Shown here one piece after another: positions 4,754 through 36,210 of a stretch of 36,564 bases of DNA. Below the pieces are notes generated by a model. The model had not been told where the DNA came from. It ran no database searches and saw only the letters and a list, made by a program, of their open reading frames with translations. The translations under genes were made by a program, and so were the position numbers. This DNA comes from a virus: positions 1 to 36,564 of IMG/VR virus record IMGVR_UViG_3300010297_000019; one strand, 5' to 3'. The stretch's first letter is position 1; each line of letters opens with the position of its first letter.

Positions 4754-4827
4754 AGCCTGATGTCGGACTTGAACCGACGACCTACGGTTTACAAAACCGT
4801 TGCTCTATCCAGCTGAGCTAATCAGGC
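4754..4827 (-). tRNA. tRNA-Thr (anticodon UGU)
   Basis: The - strand folds into a complete cloverleaf. The acceptor stem is GCCTGAT with ATCAGGC; the D arm is GCTC/GAGC. The anticodon stem is ACGGT/ACCGT with loop TTTGTAA, giving anticodon UGU (Thr, codon ACA). The variable loop is AGGTC, and the T arm is GTCGG/CCGAC with loop TTCAAGT. The discriminator base is T and CCA is not encoded. Its first 10 nt overlap the end of the upstream gene, whose TAG stop is made of tRNA bases 8-10. Cyanomyoviruses commonly carry a few tRNAs that suit AT-richer phage codons. Confidence 0.95.
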
Positions 4828-29985: not shown

Positions 29986-30344
29986 TTCTTCCTCACTTTG
30001 GTTCCAGGTTTACGACCTGGTTTACGTTCGGCATGATAATCCCAAGCATCTTTCAAGATACCATAGAGATAGTCCCTGACCTTTCTTGCTTTGGGTTTAG
30101 GGAGATAACCATACGCTTCACGTAAGACCTTATCACCTCCCTTGATGTAGTCTTCCAACTCCAAGATGATGAAGTTTAGGTTAGCAGCACACTGACTCTC
30201 AATGAAATCATTAGTTTGTCGTCGTGTCCACTTGTTTGTTTTTAGGTATGGGTACAACCTGAACAGGAACTTCTGCTCAGTCATGGCAAGATCTATGGAC
30301 TTGTCCACGAGTTCATATAGTTCCTGTTCATTATGTTGGGTCAT
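29982..30344 (-). CDS. Hypothetical protein, 120 aa
   Basis: A basic helical protein (MTQHNEQELYELVDKSIDLA..., MTEQKFLFRLYPYLKTNKWT, with ELEDYIKGGDKVLREAYGYL) ending in a Lys/Arg-rich tail (KPGRKPGTKVRKK). The tail suggests nucleic-acid binding, but no domain is recognised. Start at 30344 is set by a TGATG overlap with the glutaredoxin stop; the in-frame GTG at 30353 is less likely. Confidence 0.65.
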   Translation of the reverse strand: MTQHNEQELYELVDKSIDLAMTEQKFLFRLYPYLKTNKWTRRQTNDFIESQCAANLNFIILELEDYIKGGDKVLREAYGYLPKPKARKVRDYLYGILKDAWDYHAERKPGRKPGTKVRKK

Positions 30345-30595
30345 CAGAGGCACTTGTTCTCACGAAGATAGGCAATCGACTCGGTGCATCCACCGATCTT
30401 GTTCCCATTGATCAGAACCTGAGGGAAGGTAGCTCGTTGACCAAACTCCTGTCGGAATTGGTCACGAGTGAAGTTCTGATCGAGAACAAGTTCACTATAC
30501 TGCCAACCTCGCATCCTGTAAACCTCTTTGATCTTTGTGCAGTAGGGACACCCAGGACGAGTGTAGATTACTGTGCCACCAGGATTCTTAGCCAT
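30344..30595 (-). CDS. grx: Glutaredoxin, 83 aa
   Basis: A full thioredoxin-fold glutaredoxin with the dithiol site GCPYC (C16 and C19), TVIYTRPGCPYC, and the cis-Pro motif ATFPQVLINGNKIGGCTE. In T4 and cyanophages it supplies electrons to ribonucleotide reductase and repairs glutathionylated proteins. It heads the DNA-metabolism operon, after a terminator at 30616-30637. No clear promoter is seen between that terminator and the ATG, so transcription probably reads through. A second, altered copy is at 22019-22261. Confidence 0.9.
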   Translation of the reverse strand: MAKNPGGTVIYTRPGCPYCTKIKEVYRMRGWQYSELVLDQNFTRDQFRQEFGQRATFPQVLINGNKIGGCTESIAYLRENKCL

Positions 30596-30615
30596 AATAA
30601 TTTCAGGTAGAGATT

Positions 30616-30637
30616 AAAAAAGGGGACCGAAGTCCCC
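30616..30637 (-). terminator. Rho-independent terminator after exported barrel protein gene
   Basis: Stem GGGGAC/GTCCCC (6 bp) with a CGAA loop, followed on the - strand by six T. It lies 27 nt after the gene at 30664-31041 and 21 nt before the glutaredoxin start. Confidence 0.85.
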
Positions 30638-30663
30638 TGTATATATTATGTCAACGCTTAGGA

Positions 30664-31041
30664 TCAGAAGGAATACTTCACACCCAGTTTACCACCGTAG
30701 CCACGGTCGATGTCGCTGTCGCCAGAACCGACGAAGGAGACTTCACCATAGACACCCAGTTGCTCGGTAGCGGCGAGACCGATGCCTGCCTTACCAGAAG
30801 GAACGGTGTCACTATCAGAACCATCGGGAGTCAGATAGGTAGCACCACCCTGAACGTACCAAGAGGCAGACTCACCCAGAGCACCTTCGTAGCCCACATG
30901 GAAATCAGTTGCGGCACCAGTGTAGTCAGAGCCAGTCCAACCAGCATTGGTTTCCACGTTGACGTAGGGACCTGCGAGGGCAGCAGACGGAGCCACAACA
31001 GCAGCAGTAGCGGCGAGAGTTGCGATAGCAGTTTTGATCAT
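30664..31041 (-). CDS. Exported outer-membrane barrel-like protein, 125 aa
   Basis: Begins MIKTAIATLAATAAVVAPSA then ALAG, a classic signal peptide with an A-L-A cleavage site near residue 23. The mature protein is a run of short alternating strands with Gly turns (VNVETNAGWTGSDYTGAATD, FHVGYEGALGESASWYVQGG) ending G-K-L-G-V-K-Y-S-F. The terminal Phe and the alternating pattern match the beta-signal recognised by the BAM complex. I infer an outer-membrane barrel of about 6-8 strands, similar in outline to proteins carried by other cyanophages. It has its own promoters, a palindrome and a terminator. Confidence 0.75.
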   Translation of the reverse strand: MIKTAIATLAATAAVVAPSAALAGPYVNVETNAGWTGSDYTGAATDFHVGYEGALGESASWYVQGGATYLTPDGSDSDTVPSGKAGIGLAATEQLGVYGEVSFVGSGDSDIDRGYGGKLGVKYSF

Positions 31042-31118
31042 TTCTTTTTACCTGTTAGTTACTTGCGGAATGGTTACCCGCAGATGTATAGGGACTCGAC
31101 TTGTCCCGTTTGTTACAA

Positions 31119-31137
31119 ACCGTTAAGTCTTAACGGT
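31119..31137. promoter_or_regulatory. Perfect 19-nt palindrome at the transcription start (operator or leader hairpin)
   Basis: ACCGTTAAG-T-CTTAACGGT, a 9-nt inverted repeat around a single base. It begins about 7 nt after the -10 of the proximal promoter (31144-31149), so it would lie at the very 5' end of the transcript. It could bind a repressor dimer or fold in RNA with a 3-nt loop. Confidence 0.6.
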
Positions 31138-31143
31138 ATATGT

Positions 31144-31171
31144 ATAATACCAGAGAGTCCAAAAATGTCAA
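31144..31171 (-). promoter_or_regulatory. Sigma70-type promoter (proximal), TTGACA-16-TATTAT with extended -10
   Basis: -35 TTGACA (31166-31171) and -10 TATTAT (31144-31149), 16-nt spacer, preceded by TGG (extended -10). It drives the exported barrel protein gene starting at 31041. Confidence 0.65.
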
Positions 31172-31230
31172 CCGTGTGACAGTTTTGTTTTGGAATCAAA
31201 ACATTGAGGTCTCTCTGGGATCATGAGATA

Positions 31231-31259
31231 AGTGTACCAGGTTCTGGTGGTCTTGTCAA
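31231..31259 (-). promoter_or_regulatory. Sigma70-type promoter (distal), TTGACA-17-TACACT with extended -10
   Basis: -35 TTGACA (31254-31259) and -10 TACACT (31231-31236), spacer 17 nt, with TGG before the -10. The TGA in the -35 is the stop of the upstream gene (31256-31258). In tandem with the proximal promoter for the barrel protein gene. Confidence 0.55.
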
Positions 31260-31615
31260 TCCTTTCTCAGAGCATTACGAATCTTTTCAACTTGTTCTGG
31301 TGTAGGTTCTTGATCCACCACAACAGGTTCCTCAGGCATGTCAGGCACGATCTGTTTGAGTTCTTCGAGTGCCAAAGGAACATCCTCCAACAGTTCTGGA
31401 TCCTGTTCGAGACGATCCATCTCACCCAACCAACCATAGTGGTATTTCCTCCACGCTTTAAGCATCCTCTTACGACCCTTGGGATCGTCAGGATACTTGC
31501 GTAGGATCTTTTGTAGACCTGTCAGTTTCTTGACACCATCCACAATCATACGATCTGTGTTCTTAGATCTACCACCGTTACCAGGACGGTTAGTGAAACC
31601 AAAACCTTCTGTCAT
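31256..31615 (-). CDS. Hypothetical protein, 119 aa
   Basis: A charged, helix-rich protein. The N-terminus (MTEGFGFTNRPGNGGRSKNT) is Gly/Arg-rich, followed by KKLTGLQKILRKYPDDPKGR, WRKYHYGWLGEMDRLEQDPE and an acidic, proline-containing C-terminus. No domain recognised. It follows the large structural protein with a 1-nt overlap. Its stop is part of a promoter -35. Confidence 0.65.
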   Translation of the reverse strand: MTEGFGFTNRPGNGGRSKNTDRMIVDGVKKLTGLQKILRKYPDDPKGRKRMLKAWRKYHYGWLGEMDRLEQDPELLEDVPLALEELKQIVPDMPEEPVVVDQEPTPEQVEKIRNALRKD

Positions 31616-34600
31616 TAGTAAACTTCCTCAATTTCAATTCTAAATTTAACACGGTCCTTTGTCTTCTGGCAAAGATACCAGAGGTTAGAACTCCTGTTAT
31701 GTGATTCTTGATAGAACAATTCCTTAGGAGAGTAGGAGTTGTTGAATCTATCATCAGGATCCTCACCGACAGTCTGTACCCTAATCTTTTTAGGTAATTT
31801 ATCTGGGTGACCAGGTAAGACGTTAGCACCTACGTCCCTAGGGAAGAAAGGTGTTTGAGAACCAAAGAGGTCCTGATAGTCATCAGACTCATCCTGAATA
31901 GGTGGCCATACTAAGTCGAACGTTTGTCCAACACCATATGCGTACCCTTCATTGATGACATCCATGATCTCAACACCACATGCCCAGTAGATAGAGTTAG
32001 AGTATCTCTGAGTACCCGCAGGCAAGTGAGATGGCATCACTGTATATGGCCAGAATGCCACACGTATCTTACCACTACCACCAACATCTGTCGAGTTCTG
32101 CTTAGAACCATACTCACCCAGTCGATAGTCATGCATGAATGACATCTTACTGTACTGTCCATTACTGGTAGGCATGGCTCCTTGTGGGAATCCATCGGTG
32201 CTCAGATTGATACCATAAGCATAGTAGTTATCGATAGTCTGCATTGCTGAGTTGAAGTTACTACCACTACCCGCCTTGAACTGAGTGTACCATGCCATGA
32301 AACCATGGGTGTTAGACATGTGAACATACGTCCTGAGATTCTCATTATCAAGAACTGGTTTACAGATCAGACCTCTACCATATTCAAACAGTGCATTGTA
32401 GAAGATACCACGACCACCTCTGATGTTTGGATTGCCATTGAAGTTTCCTTCACCATCGATGTTGGAACTCATGACATGTCCACGTCGGTTAGTATTCCTC
32501 TCATAGAAGTTACCATTGTAACCCTGATTGTCTGCCCACTCTTGACCATCATAGTAGATGCTATTCCACTCTACTGCTTGACCGTTGGAGGAGTTAGCAT
32601 TGGTATCTATCTGACCCTGATCCCAGACATAAACTTTATCAGTCCATACTCTTCTAGGTTTATCCCAGAGACGGATAGAAAGTCTCTTGATTCTACCACC
32701 AGAAGTAATGCCTGCCGAACCTAGATACTCACCGATCCTAGGAGTATTAGAAGTAACCTCAGTCCTACCCATTGCCTCACCTGTGATAGGTGTGGTGCCA
32801 ATGTCATACTGCCATGGTTTCTCGAAGACCTTATCGTCTCGGTCATAGATGATCCAAGATACGTTAGCGATACCTGCACTAGGACCACGTTTGATCTCAT
32901 CGATCTCGAACAGCAACTTATCACCCTTAACAACAGAGAAGTCACCAAAGTTATGTCCGATGTTTGGCCATGCTCCGATAGGTGCTTCGTAATTAATGAT
33001 AGTGGTTCCGTTCTTCTTCAACTTGAACCTGAATCTAATCTCCTCACTCTCAACAGAACGAATAAGGAGACCGAATGCTTTCAGGCTGAGGTTAGCAGAG
33101 CGTCTACAACGAACAGTTTGTCTTCTGTAAAACTCGTGAGCATACTCACCACGGCAGAGACCAGCATTAGCCTGGTACTGCTCAGTGTTCTTGTTGGGTG
33201 GTGTCTTGGGACCACACTTAGAACGCATGACCATACCAGTCTCAAACGCTTTGTTGAAGAGTGGTTCAGCACACTGATCTCTGACAAGGATGTCAATCAA
33301 TTCTGGTTCAGGTGCTGCTTGGTCATACACATAGCATTCAATACCTTCATACTTCCAAGTCGAACCAGGAGCTCCAACACGATAGTACAGTTTGAAGTCA
33401 TCATAGTCTTCATCACTATCGGAACCATGAAGATCTTCCCACCACTGCTCACCAGGTCCATGGAACTTCACCTTGTTTCTCTTGTCAGGATTCATCTTCT
33501 GGTTAGAGAAGAAGACCCAGTTACCTTCGACAGAAGCAGGGTGCTGGTATGCATTGCCAGTCTTTGAGAAGGAGATGGTAGAACCATTGCTACCCACACC
33601 ACCATTACCATCAGGGATGAGGAAGAACACGATGTCCTTACCTGCATACTGCTTCAAGGTGCCGACAGAGATAGTGTATTGAGTGTACTCAATGTCCCTC
33701 GTAGTGTTTGCTTCGATGACTCTCGCCCAGTGGATATTGCCACCATCTTTGTCAGCAATACAGACACCCCAACTGTTCTCGTATCCAGCAGATCCTCTCT
33801 TCACACTGTAATGAATAGTGAAAGGAACATCAGCATCACTAGGAATAGTGTATGCCTGTCTCTTATTAAACTTAGGCGGCGTCATGCTGCCTTGCATTTT
33901 CACAATGGAATACTTGTGATCAGTTGCAGTGCTGGGTCCAGGTCTGGTGCTACCAATAAAGAGAGAAGCATTACAGTCACTACCATCACTATCTCGGAGA
34001 CAGAGTTTCTTACCGTTGTCTTGTACACTAATACCTTTGAGTCCAGTGTAATTAACATTGATAGTCTGACCAGCAGTGACACTCAGAGAAACACCTTTGC
34101 TTCCCCTTTCTCCTTTTCTAGTGACGGTCTGTCCTTGTCCGAAGTCAATCGTATTGAAGGACGTACCAGCATTACCAGGATCATCATCCCACTGTACGTT
34201 GATTTTCAGTTGACCACTACCATCACCACTCACAACAATGTTTCCACTGCTGTTGAAGACCGCACTGATCTCTGCCTTACCACCGTTGTAGTAACGATGC
34301 AGTTCTTGAATCCTCTCACCTTCTAAGAGATTTCCAGATGCACGGTCCTTATTGGGGAACACATACCCCAGAACTGTATCGATCACCTGCCCTGCTGCAT
34401 CCATGGTGGCACGTTCGCCAGGACCCTTAGAGTCAGGAGCACCAGGGTTGATGGTCAGGAACGTATCCTGTGTGGTCTCAGAGTAGGAACGGAAGAGGGG
34501 CACGGACCCTTTCACCCTTTCTTTGAGGATATAGAAAGCAGGTTCACCTTGATTGGTGACAGTGTACCCACCTTTATCAGGTTGAGATGTAAGACCATAC

Positions 34601-36210
34601 CTGTGGTCACTGGTACTACCACCAGCCTCAATGACCTCAATCTTAAAGGTCAGGTCTCTCTTGCCAGCATTGAATGTGTGTTCAACTTCCGTACCGATTG
34701 CAGGAAGATTACCCGAGAAACCATCCACCCACCATCTACTATCGTACTCACCATCATCATTAACGGATTGAATCTTAACGGTTACAGTTGCACCACCAAC
34801 GCTTACGTTCCTCGTATGAGTCGTAGCACTATTGAAATACTTGTTACCTGCTGGACAGAATACCTTACCACCAGTGTAGTTACCTGCCACATCCGTGGTC
34901 TGGACACGCAAGTTATGCTTCACAAATGAACCAGTGCCATTACCCAGAGCGTCAGCAACAGGAGTGACCATCACATTAGGGACACCTGCTGTCTTGTATT
35001 CGTAGACAGGAATACGTTCTGGGAAGCAGTTAGCAACACAGATCTTCTTGGTGATTGAGTTCTGACCACGGAAGTAGAAGGTATCACAGTCCGCTGGTGG
35101 AGATCTGTATGTGCCTGTTGCATATGGTTTGAACAGACAGTCCAGATAGTTCTTGACACACGACTCCCACTCTGGATCATCAGTTGTGGGTATTTCTCTA
35201 TCATTACAGATAAGAATCTTACCTTTATTAGGACCCTTGATATAGATCCATTTATCTTTTTCCTGTGGATACTTATATCTTTTAATCTCGCCTGCTAGTT
35301 TTCCAAGTTCTACTTCATTACAATCGAATCCATCAGTAATACGAGGACCATCATAGGGGGGCATCGGTGGAATAATTGGACCAGGATTCTGTTCACAAAT
35401 AGAAAGGTATGGGAACAATTCACACAACCATTCCCACGGTGGTGGGTCAGGGAAGAGTGGAATAGGTTTCCTCGGATCAACATCACCAGGTTGTGGTTGA
35501 GGAGTCGGAACGATCTCAGGATAGCATCGCTGAACGATCTCCCTAATGACTTCACCAGGAGGAGTGAATGCGGGATCCTCCTCTGGTCCTTTCCTAGGTC
35601 TAGGATAGTTAGGACCATCATCTGGTTCCAAGAAAGGACCGATGGGACCATAGCACTGACCAACCAGATCTCTAATGACATCAGAACCATTAGGAGGAAT
35701 AGGTTCTAACTCAATCTCTTTCTTAGGTCTCGGAAGGTAAGGACCAGGGTCAGGTTTCAGGGTGACAGGTAGACCGTCGTAGCAGTTGTCTACGATAGAA
35801 CGTACCAGGTCACCAGGTTGTGCCGCAGGAGGGGTGATGAGAGTACCCTGCCTGGGTCTAGGAGTGCTTACAGCAGGACTACCTGCCTCCTGAGGGACCA
35901 CCGCACGGGGGGGTTCACCAGGGATGTAGCAGTTGCCTACTGTGATTTGAATTGGGTTGACGGGAGCAGGGGGTTCAGGTTCTATACCCCTTCTCGGTCT
36001 AGTATAAGCGATGTTCCCTCCCACTTGGGGGAGGGGAGACTCGGGACCATAGCATGATCCCACAGTGATACGCACTTGCTCACCAGGTTGTGGCAGTACA
36101 ATCGGCTGTGCTACTCCTGTCCTTGGTTTGACATACTGAGTAGCAGCAGACGTTGTACGCTCTGGTAGAGACGGTGGAGGACCGCTATAACAAGGATTGC
36201 CAGCAACCAT
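31615..36210 (-). CDS. Large adhesin-like structural protein with Cys-Tyr repeat, 1531 aa
   Basis: Residues 1-240 hold six Cys-Tyr units (C7, C53, C94, C143, C187, C229) in a proline-rich repeat: V-R-x-x-V-x-x-C-Y, then P-R-P-R-x-G. About 570-645 (PLFRSYSETTQDTFLTINPG, ELHRYYN) resembles DUF5648-type lectin-like modules. About 800-945 ends WEDLHGSDSDEDYDDF, as in DUF4114 domains. The rest is Gly/Ser/Thr/Asn-rich beta structure. I infer a virion fibre or whisker-type protein for host attachment. A late box (36233-36240) stands 23 nt upstream. It is one of the largest structural genes of the window; which virion part is unknown. Confidence 0.7.
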   Translation of the reverse strand: MVAGNPCYSGPPPSLPERTTSAATQYVKPRTGVAQPIVLPQPGEQVRITVGSCYGPESPLPQVGGNIAYTRPRRGIEPEPPAPVNPIQITVGNCYIPGEPPRAVVPQEAGSPAVSTPRPRQGTLITPPAAQPGDLVRSIVDNCYDGLPVTLKPDPGPYLPRPKKEIELEPIPPNGSDVIRDLVGQCYGPIGPFLEPDDGPNYPRPRKGPEEDPAFTPPGEVIREIVQRCYPEIVPTPQPQPGDVDPRKPIPLFPDPPPWEWLCELFPYLSICEQNPGPIIPPMPPYDGPRITDGFDCNEVELGKLAGEIKRYKYPQEKDKWIYIKGPNKGKILICNDREIPTTDDPEWESCVKNYLDCLFKPYATGTYRSPPADCDTFYFRGQNSITKKICVANCFPERIPVYEYKTAGVPNVMVTPVADALGNGTGSFVKHNLRVQTTDVAGNYTGGKVFCPAGNKYFNSATTHTRNVSVGGATVTVKIQSVNDDGEYDSRWWVDGFSGNLPAIGTEVEHTFNAGKRDLTFKIEVIEAGGSTSDHRYGLTSQPDKGGYTVTNQGEPAFYILKERVKGSVPLFRSYSETTQDTFLTINPGAPDSKGPGERATMDAAGQVIDTVLGYVFPNKDRASGNLLEGERIQELHRYYNGGKAEISAVFNSSGNIVVSGDGSGQLKINVQWDDDPGNAGTSFNTIDFGQGQTVTRKGERGSKGVSLSVTAGQTINVNYTGLKGISVQDNGKKLCLRDSDGSDCNASLFIGSTRPGPSTATDHKYSIVKMQGSMTPPKFNKRQAYTIPSDADVPFTIHYSVKRGSAGYENSWGVCIADKDGGNIHWARVIEANTTRDIEYTQYTISVGTLKQYAGKDIVFFLIPDGNGGVGSNGSTISFSKTGNAYQHPASVEGNWVFFSNQKMNPDKRNKVKFHGPGEQWWEDLHGSDSDEDYDDFKLYYRVGAPGSTWKYEGIECYVYDQAAPEPELIDILVRDQCAEPLFNKAFETGMVMRSKCGPKTPPNKNTEQYQANAGLCRGEYAHEFYRRQTVRCRRSANLSLKAFGLLIRSVESEEIRFRFKLKKNGTTIINYEAPIGAWPNIGHNFGDFSVVKGDKLLFEIDEIKRGPSAGIANVSWIIYDRDDKVFEKPWQYDIGTTPITGEAMGRTEVTSNTPRIGEYLGSAGITSGGRIKRLSIRLWDKPRRVWTDKVYVWDQGQIDTNANSSNGQAVEWNSIYYDGQEWADNQGYNGNFYERNTNRRGHVMSSNIDGEGNFNGNPNIRGGRGIFYNALFEYGRGLICKPVLDNENLRTYVHMSNTHGFMAWYTQFKAGSGSNFNSAMQTIDNYYAYGINLSTDGFPQGAMPTSNGQYSKMSFMHDYRLGEYGSKQNSTDVGGSGKIRVAFWPYTVMPSHLPAGTQRYSNSIYWACGVEIMDVINEGYAYGVGQTFDLVWPPIQDESDDYQDLFGSQTPFFPRDVGANVLPGHPDKLPKKIRVQTVGEDPDDRFNNSYSPKELFYQESHNRSSNLWYLCQKTKDRVKFRIEIEEVY
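35515..36192 (-). repeat. Six Cys-Tyr/proline-rich repeats in the large structural protein
   Basis: Protein-level repeat of 41-49 residues, centred on C7, C53, C94, C143, C187 and C229, each followed by Tyr. Consensus is roughly P-G-x-x-[VI]-R-x-[IL]-V-x-x-C-Y, then a Pro-rich spacer and P-R-P-[RK]-x-G. Units are diverged at DNA level. Confidence 0.75.

What the first reader, a model, noticed from the sequence alone, without database searches (positions are those of the whole stretch)
30664..31259. Phage-encoded outer-membrane barrel under tandem promoters
Seen: signal peptide ending ALA, beta-rich mature part ending in Phe, two sigma70-type promoters, one terminator. It is an independent unit between structural and metabolic operons. 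Inferred: it may change host outer-membrane permeability, block superinfection, or help lysis.
Basis: partly seen in the sequence, partly recalled or inferred. Interest (0 to 1): 0.7.

Follow-up and report, generated by a model that had tools for sequence, protein, structure and literature searches.

The report
Cyanophage outer-membrane protein with RNA leader
Viruses of ocean cyanobacteria carry a small gene for a protein that is probably sent to the host's outer membrane; the protein family was already named, but its messenger RNA begins with a folded element for which I found no description, and the protein looks like half of a membrane pore.

Summary
ORF 30664-31041 (minus, 125 aa) has a signal peptide, an AxA site, alternating membrane-type beta strands and a C-terminal Phe. 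Its family is named: Pfam PF24653 'Cyanophage outer membrane protein like beta barrel', phrog_417, 'DUF680'/PhCOG173; 472 of 50,697 phage records match. It is a one-gene unit across the family, but tandem promoters are rare (19 of 284 loci).

(1) The mRNA carries a conserved two-hairpin leader (31111-31057) absent from Rfam; 10 of 12 pairs show double changes, and it lies directly before this gene in 118 of 119 pattern hits, the other contig being cut. P-SSM7-type leaders add a U-tract and a second, exclusive pairing, like an attenuator; their 5' module also precedes psbA in 18 loci. (2) AlphaFold gives six strands, fewer than any natural stand-alone outer-membrane barrel I know of; some cyanobacterial relatives are tandem doubles, so two copies may make one 12-strand pore.

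Best function: a pore subunit changing host permeability; a paralogue sits beside pstS with Pho-box-like sites. Function is untested. Published passaging suggests the gene is dispensable, perhaps costly, on one host.

The parts
30664..31041 (-). ORF, 125 aa, cyanophage outer-membrane protein (PF24653 / phrog_417 / DUF680 / PhCOG173 family), 'type A'
   Evidence: PF24653 E 8.8e-49, 165.2 bits against cut-off 27; phrog_417 E 2.4e-52; tblastn 472 of 50,697 phage records
30973..31041 (-). signal peptide, residues 1-23, cleavage after ALA
   Evidence: sequence; AxA in 114 of 114 aligned members
30667..30972 (-). mature part, 102 residues, six predicted amphipathic strands, C-terminal Phe, net charge -9
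   Evidence: AlphaFold2 mean pLDDT 81, pTM 0.66, strands 24-36, 39-55, 59-72, 78-90, 95-104, 114-123; hydropathy alternation 2.73 against 1.09 shuffled, 0 of 2000
31144..31171 (-). sigma70-type promoter TTGACA-16-TATTAT
   Evidence: site upstream of 240 of 284 type-A genes, 14 of 284 shuffled; within 120 nt of HP1, best site at least 10/12 in 182 of 284, 4 of 284 shuffled
31231..31259 (-). second promoter-like site TTGACA-17-TACACT, overlapping the end of the upstream ORF; doubtful
   Evidence: two sites in only 19 of 284 loci
31057..31111 (-). conserved structured leader RNA (model R1): HP1, CAUC linker, HP2, AGUAA
   Evidence: 67.8 bits, E 6.1e-17 (L001, with the same leader, is in the training set); covariation; no Rfam match at this place
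31119..31137 (-). extra leader hairpin HP0, ACCGUUAA-GAC-UUAACGGU
   Evidence: fold of the 96-nt leader; hairpins of other sequence at that place in several loci, seen by eye only
31091..31107 (-). leader hairpin HP1, GGGAC-AAGUCGA-GUCCC
   Evidence: in the family 6 of 6 pairs with changes on both sides, 86.7% of cells paired
31064..31082 (-). leader hairpin HP2, UGCGGG-UAACCAU-UCCGCA
   Evidence: in the family 4 of 6 pairs with changes on both sides, 99.7% of cells paired
30616..30638 (-). intrinsic terminator with UUCG loop
   Evidence: in 212 of 283 relatives, 1 of 283 shuffled
30344..30595 (-). downstream neighbour: glutaredoxin (nrdC), after the terminator
   Evidence: Pfam Glutaredoxin E 1.4e-11

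Best explanation
This is a self-contained phage cassette that puts a small pore subunit into the host outer membrane during infection. Shown by sequence: host-type promoter, folded 5' leader RNA, one gene, terminator. Predicted: the protein is exported by Sec, folded by BAM through its C-terminal Phe, and forms six amphipathic strands. Inferred: because natural stand-alone outer-membrane barrels known to me (recalled) have at least eight strands and some cyanobacterial relatives are two fused modules, two subunits (two of this protein, or this one with its pstS-linked paralogue) close into one barrel of about 12 strands with a polar lumen, raising permeability to small solutes such as phosphate compounds. 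The leader fixes how much protein is made: at least a stabilising or translational element in the version seen here, and probably a transcription attenuator in the P-SSM7-type version. Step confidences: exported outer-membrane protein 0.9; functional leader RNA 0.95; attenuator in the P-SSM7-type 0.5; two-subunit barrel 0.4; permeability as the benefit 0.5.
For: Family and export. Fold: six strands in this protein and in the pstS-linked type; best structural matches are outer-membrane barrels, OprF Z 10.3, 99 residues, 3.2 A. Strand alternation in one parity in all six strands, 0 of 2000 shuffles. Double modules in cyanobacteria: Pfam finds two PF24653 stretches in L447 and L448; their halves are 32% and 35% identical, E 1e-13 and 4e-16. 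Paralogue: pstS within 700 nt in 13 of 16 type-B loci, Pho-box-like sites in 16 of 21 against 4.15 expected. Leader: covariation 0.610 against 0.262 shuffled and 0.117-0.191 slid; directly before the gene in 5 of 6 named genomes not used for the model; HP2 pattern followed by this gene in 118 of 119 hits, the other contig being cut. Attenuator: both exclusive pairings better than shuffled, 0 of 300 each; U-tract in 112 of 115 such leaders, 12 of 189 others.
Against: No experiment shows membrane location, oligomer or pore. The monomer model cannot tell a dimer from a closed six-strand barrel or an open sheet; I had no coordinates to inspect and did not fold the host double protein. The protein is acidic (-9; type-A mean -9.7, n 96), not what I would expect of a phosphate-selective pore. 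This window's leader has no U-tract or outer pairing partner (by inspection) and its gene no clear Pho box (best match 2 mismatches of 8; none exact in 308 type-A loci), so neither the attenuator nor phosphate control is shown for it. S-TIM4 passaged on Synechococcus WH8102 in nutrient-replete medium accumulated disruptive mutations in the gene (PMC6224464, section 9). The outer-stem energy gain is small (-11.68 against -11.04) and relatedness can inflate such tests. One of the six test genomes (ACG-2014f) has the gene and no leader hit. Most host matches are partial, and in the longer host proteins the first-half match is mostly not significant.
Confidence: 0.45

Rival explanations
1. Superinfection exclusion: the protein sits in the outer membrane and masks or rearranges the phage receptor so that infected cells reject further phages.
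For: Outer-membrane features predicted; one-gene unit with a host-type promoter; apparently dispensable in passaging (PMC6224464, section 9).
Against: Predicted outer loops are 2-9 residues; loops only modestly more variable than strands, the presumed inner turns no less than the outer loops (entropy 1.4-1.8 outer, 1.6-1.9 inner, 1.1 strands); does not explain the pstS-linked paralogue.
Confidence: 0.17
2. Single-chain barrel: the protein closes alone, as a six-strand barrel or by recruiting extra segments, and works like OmpX or OmpA-type small barrels rather than as half of a pore.
For: Many of the best structure matches are eight-strand barrels (strand counts recalled); weak PF13505 OMP_b-brl hit, E 0.0056, below cut-off.
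Against: Two models, from overlapping alignments, give six strands; two host relatives are doubles.
Confidence: 0.25
3. Virion component: a minor particle protein, the outer-membrane features being incidental.
For: Two peptides, 25.4% coverage, in S-SZBM1 particles (PMC9146016, table passage).
Against: Listed among mutated genes not particle-associated in S-TIM4 (PMC6224464, section 9); signal peptide cleavage site in 114 of 114 aligned members; membrane debris can carry outer-membrane proteins into virion preparations (general knowledge).
Confidence: 0.1
4. Leader as plain stabiliser: the two hairpins only protect the 5' end of the mRNA and keep the ribosome site open, as the ompA leader of E. 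coli does (recalled), with no sensing.
For: In 39 of the 182 loci with a good promoter the -10 box ends 27-34 nt before the CAUC linker, which puts the start of transcription near the base of HP1 (57 nt in this window); this window's leader lacks the U-tract.
Against: The GUCG loop is kept in 55 of 65 leaders while the stem letters change, more than stability needs; P-SSM7-type leaders have two exclusive pairings with a U-tract. The CAUC linker was part of my search motif, so its constancy in A1 is no evidence; I raised this rival slightly for that reason.
Confidence: 0.43

Closest known systems
PF24653 Phage_OMP / phrog_417 / 'DUF680' (PhCOG173) of cyanophages, e.g. S-TIM4 ORF224, S-SM2 SSM2_217
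   Same: Full-length match; same leader RNA in 8 of 8 named genomes used for the model; nrdC, td and phoH nearby in S-SZBM1, P-SSM7, S-TIM4, P-SSM3, MED4-213 and ACG-2014b
   Different: Nothing essential; this is a new member. The window has an extra far promoter-like site and an extra leader hairpin
Two-module outer-membrane proteins of Synechococcus-order genomes (L447, L448; longer His-rich relatives L438, L441, L442)
   Same: Each half of L447 and L448 is a PF24653-like module
   Different: Two fused modules, about 259-330 aa. R1 gave 3 weak hits in 399 genomes, E 5e-4 to 5e-3, not followed up, under filters that lose weak matches
OmpA/OmpX/OprF-type small barrels
   Same: Meander of amphipathic strands, C-terminal Phe, Z up to 10.3
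   Different: Six predicted strands instead of eight; no sequence match over cut-off
PhotoRC-II RNA (RF01717) before cyanophage psbA
   Same: Phage leader RNA with two hairpins; in 18 loci a PhotoRC-II-like psbA leader (recognised by eye) begins with the 5' module of the P-SSM7-type leader of this gene
   Different: No PhotoRC-II match in the window; different hairpins
Other cyanophage regulatory RNAs: wcaG, manA, glnA; antisense CfrI
   Same: Known regulatory RNAs of the same phages (PMC2864571, PMC9602691, PMC9964418, passages)
   Different: No Rfam family overlapped the window leader; the passages read describe none for this gene

Membership tests
PF24653 Phage_OMP | profile score over curated cut-off across the full length | tested here: met
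   165.2 bits against 27, residues 1-125, profile 1-122 of 122
PF24653 Phage_OMP | signal peptide and C-terminal Phe, as in aligned members | tested here: met
Outer-membrane beta-barrel protein | amphipathic strands with one hydrophobic face | tested here: met
   2.73 against 1.09, 0 of 2000; strand limits are predictions
Outer-membrane beta-barrel protein | located in the outer membrane | not testable with these tools
   needs fractionation
OmpA/OmpX-type eight-strand barrel (PF13505) | profile score over cut-off | tested here: not met
   17.3 bits against 28.7
OmpA/OmpX-type eight-strand barrel (PF13505) | eight strands | tested here: not met
   six strands in two models from overlapping alignments; predictions
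OmpA/OmpX-type eight-strand barrel (PF13505) | fold similarity | tested here: inconclusive
   OmpA, OmpX, OprF Z 9-10, rmsd 3.2-3.8 A
PhoB-controlled phage gene (PhCOG173 as described for phosphate stress) | Pho box CTTA-N7-CTTA upstream | tested here: not met
   window best 2 mismatches; exact 0 of 308 type A, 4 of 21 type B
PhotoRC-II (RF01717) | covariance-model match | tested here: not met
   no PhotoRC-II match in the window at gathering score, nor in 30600-31300 at E up to 10, where three chance-level hits to other families lie outside the leader
Conserved structured RNA | compensatory changes beyond shuffled and slid controls | tested here: met
   140 double-changed cells against 43.8; 10 of 12 pairs
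Transcription attenuator or riboswitch | two exclusive pairings, one followed by a U-tract | tested here: not met
   window leader lacks both (by inspection); both present in P-SSM7-type relatives
Transcription attenuator or riboswitch | ligand- or condition-dependent readthrough | not testable with these tools
   needs transcription assays

The most novel reading that the evidence does not exclude
Cyanophages carry a split outer-membrane pore: six-strand half barrels that dimerise into a 12-strand channel, cut down from (or ancestral to) a fused host protein, and expressed from a previously undescribed leader RNA that works as a switch in P-SSM7-type phages and shares a 5' module with the psbA leader, so that membrane permeability and photosynthesis genes answer to one signal.
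Probability: 0.22. Interest if true: 0.8.

Novelty: new variant of a known kind. Interest (0 to 1): 0.56.

Why it matters
The gene is widespread in cultured cyanophages (472 records), yet it has only a family name. A two-subunit outer-membrane barrel of six-strand halves would, as far as I know, be new for a natural outer-membrane protein and would bear on how barrels grew by module duplication. A leader RNA kept with the gene in different genome neighbourhoods, and in one type sharing a module with psbA, offers a direct handle on how these phages time host-remodelling genes; both claims are testable with reporters and purified protein.

Tried and rejected
Rejected: 'complete eight-strand barrel' as the default reading (six strands in two models). 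Rejected: this gene as Pho-box controlled. Rejected: S-PM2d169, the most up-regulated S-PM2d gene in the phosphate-depletion table passage read (PMC10976474, passages), as a relative: S-PM2d has no PF24653 match at E up to 1, and its protein looks unrelated in the alignment. Rejected: extra leader copies in P-SSM7 and S-SM2, weak R1 hits (E 0.008 and 0.006) that lie inside annotated ORFs; two weaker hits (E 0.3 and 0.6, S-SM2 and S-TIM4) were not looked at.

Led nowhere: search for a viral relative of the host double protein (0 of 45 candidate stretches); PDB sequence search, best E 0.23, a designed barrel; the genome-contig scan, which used a single peptide pattern, gave 7 loci in assemblies named Rhodobacteraceae, Lewinella (two loci), Dehalococcoidia, Euryarchaeota, Gammaproteobacteria and one Prochlorococcus single-cell genome, probably phage contigs.

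Limits. R1's hits in 77 of 80 loci L001-L080 include loci it was built from (44 of the 52 training rows); misses are L024, L046, and L062, whose upstream DNA is cut. Of 73 distinct upstream sequences 65 held the core motif; the 8 without were five pstS-type copies, L065, L024 and L046. A1 used 52 of those 65: 10 without the GUCG loop and 3 duplicates were dropped, so GUCG and CAUC are constant in A1 by selection. R1 still hits all ten of the loop-lacking leaders' loci at lower scores, 35-44 bits. In 399 host-order genomes R1 was run with stricter filters; G001, whose assembly holds a PF24653 gene, gave no R1 hit. Type A, B and C were assigned by short sequence motifs of mine. The psbA module count is biased: 18 psbA leaders were found by searching for the module, and 0 of the 7 other psbA leaders held have it. 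Host matches: 27 of 399 genomes, 19 over cut-off. Of 13 loci fetched (L435-L443, L447-L450) I call two clear doubles (L447, L448); L435 and L437 are single modules of 119-123 residues that may be phage DNA. Promoter and terminator shuffles keep base composition only.

Full report
The gene. The window is a 36,564-base virus record whose gp32 is 89% identical to that of the T4-like Synechococcus phage S-WAM1. ORF 30664-31041 on the minus strand encodes 125 residues with a signal peptide ending ALA, a 102-residue mature part and a final Phe. It matches Pfam PF24653 'Cyanophage outer membrane protein like beta barrel domain' (E 8.8e-49) and phrog_417, unknown function. Relatives were found in 472 of 50,697 phage records, named Synechococcus phage 359, cyanophage 74, Prochlorococcus phage 28, marine 8, uncultured 3. 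Many of the listed records call it 'DUF680'. S-TIM4 ORF224, called DUF680/PhCOG173 by its authors (PMC6224464, passages and section 9), is the same family: PF24653 E 4.8e-32 at the coordinates of the annotated ORF. The family name is therefore not new.

The transcription unit. Promoter-like sites of at least 10/12 occur upstream of 240 of 284 type-A relatives (14 of 284 shuffled), two sites in only 19. The 284 are what remained of 343 distinct upstream regions after 18 type-B and 41 without the leader motif were dropped. A perfect-stem terminator follows 212 of 283 (1 of 283 shuffled). Shuffles kept base composition only, and relatives share ancestry, so these counts are descriptive.

The protein. 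In the AlphaFold2 model (114 sequences, mean pLDDT 81) there are six strands; a pstS-linked paralogue (35 sequences, pLDDT 80.5, overlapping alignment) also has six. In all six strands the odd residues are the hydrophobic ones; mean odd-even difference 2.73 against 1.09 when shuffled within strands, 0 of 2000. Structural neighbours are outer-membrane barrels (OprF Z 10.3, OmpA 9.7, NspA 9.5; avidins follow at about 7), while Foldseek against the PDB gave no match at E 0.001 or better. Natural stand-alone outer-membrane barrels that I know of (recalled) have eight strands or more.

Host relatives. Of 399 genomes of the order of a Prochlorococcus assembly, 27 have a PF24653 match and 19 pass the cut-off. 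Four of the ten best are short frames of 119-140 residues, possibly phage DNA in the assemblies; most of the rest are partial matches in longer frames. In two proteins (L447, L448) Pfam finds two stretches, and the halves are 32% and 35% identical (E 1e-13, 4e-16). Longer His-rich proteins (L438, L441, L442) match in their C-terminal part; the first-half match is significant only in L441 (domain E 8e-4; 0.5-0.7 in the others). The simplest reading of the doubles is a 12-strand barrel of two six-strand modules, of which the phage protein is one. That the phage subunit dimerises is my inference.

Two phage types. Type A, as here, was followed by nrdC within 700 nt in 127 of 267 loci with enough DNA and by pstS in 14; type B by pstS in 13 of 16, with Pho-box-like sites (at most 1 mismatch) in 16 of 21 against 4.15 expected, exact in 4 of 21 against 0.2. 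Type A has 52 of 308 against 26.45 expected, exact 0 of 308 against 1.0. The window's best site has 2 mismatches. In S-SM2, S-SCSM1 and Sf-FR1 two copies are adjacent and the second precedes pstS, with phoA next in S-SM2.

The leader RNA. Upstream sequences revealed a shared leader. Aligned by sequence alone (A1, 52 rows), the structure HP1-CAUC-HP2 has 93.2% of cells paired, 140 cells changed on both sides (43.8 shuffled), 10 of 12 pairs with double changes and a covariation score of 0.610 (0.262 shuffled; 0.117-0.191 when slid). Rows were chosen by a motif that includes CAUC, part of the 5' strand of HP2 and the GUCG loop, so the constancy of those letters in A1 is by selection; 55 of 65 leaders had the loop. 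Model R1 hits the window at 31111-31057 with 67.8 bits. In whole phage genomes its strong hit lies before the gene in 8 of 8 that have the gene and were used in training, and there is none in the 1 without the gene. In genomes not used in training it lies before the gene in 5 of 6, once each, beside nrdC (S-WAM1), Hsp20 and DNA polymerase (S-SSM4), glycosyltransferases and petE (S-CAM9, S-PRM1), or a second copy and pstS (Sf-FR1). The sixth, ACG-2014f, has the gene but no hit. Rfam has no match to the leader: none at gathering score, and the three hits at E 5.7-8.5 in 30600-31300 lie elsewhere.

P-SSM7-type leaders. In 115 unique leaders (from 120 of 323 loci; the named ones are P-SSM7, P-SSM3 and MED4-213, the others contigs of unknown host) HP1 is preceded by a 5' module (GGACUCGAAAnnAUCGUAACCCUG) and the strand CGCAGGG can pair with CCCUGYG before HP1 or with CCUUGCG after it. 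For 78 unique triplets, from 112 of 115 parsed, the natural pairs beat shuffled ones: outer -11.68 against -11.04 (0 of 300), HP2 -10.86 against -9.97 (0 of 300), with no gain for the control pairing (268 of 300). A run of at least four T follows in 112 of 115, against 12 of 189 other leaders. This is attenuator anatomy, not shown to act. The 5' module pattern gave 119 places that I read: 99 before this gene, 2 in contigs that end too early but look the same, and 18 before a PhotoRC-II-like stretch (by eye) and psbA. None of the 7 psbA leaders held for other reasons has it.

Published function data. S-TIM4 passaged on Synechococcus WH8102 accumulated 13 mutations in ORF224, many expected to be disruptive, at about 100% cumulative frequency per population; the gene was mutated in no population evolved on another host (PMC6224464, section 9). 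The authors speculate that expression lowers fitness there, call it a nutrient-response gene, and say the strains used have no homologue. The protein was found in S-SZBM1 particles with two peptides (PMC9146016, passages); that phage's protein is in this family (30% identity). An abundance table lists DUF680 (173) as over-represented at BATS (PMC3686209, passage). The paper proposing the phosphate link (reference 34 of PMC6224464) I did not see.

Literature on the leader. Searches listed no paper whose title shows a leader RNA of this gene; passages of three papers on cyanophage RNAs name PhotoRC-II, wcaG, manA, glnA or CfrI. Most subscription papers are not in that library and I read no supplements, so 'undescribed' is limited to this.

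Verdict. The protein is a new member of a named family of unknown function; the new parts are the leader RNA and the half-barrel argument. The mechanism is inferred. Interest is moderate to good because both parts are cheap to test.

Noticed in passing
L454, L459, L462, L466 and 14 further loci: The 5' RNA module GGACUCGAAAnnAUCGUAACCCUG precedes a PhotoRC-II-like stretch and psbA as well as the outer-membrane gene; PhotoRC-II as defined in Rfam may be only part of the psbA leader.
   Followed up: partly
L438, L441, L442 (Synechococcus-order genomes): Host outer-membrane relatives carry His- and acid-rich stretches (such as HDDHDDHDDHEEEHAEH in L442), suggestive of metal handling.
   Followed up: no
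L085:4560-4934, L090:5507-5866, L577:2419-2778: Second copy of the family beside pstS; where tested (type B) it has Pho-box-like repeats and lacks the leader motif; a candidate outer-membrane partner of phage PstS and PhoA.
   Followed up: partly
L573:454-945 (S-SSM4): An ORF annotated 'OMP1 protein' lies near the type-A gene on the opposite strand.
   Followed up: no
window 31615-36210: 1531-aa ORF with partial similarity to major head proteins (phrog_773, residues 645-757) and a DUF4114 domain, just upstream of the unit.
   Followed up: no
window 4754-4827: tRNA-Thr (TGT) gene in the phage fragment.
   Followed up: no
upstream regions of L086, L163, L069: Another recurrent upstream motif, like GAATGGCTCAATTACTCNCGCTAGGT, in some leaders, seen by eye.
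   Followed up: no
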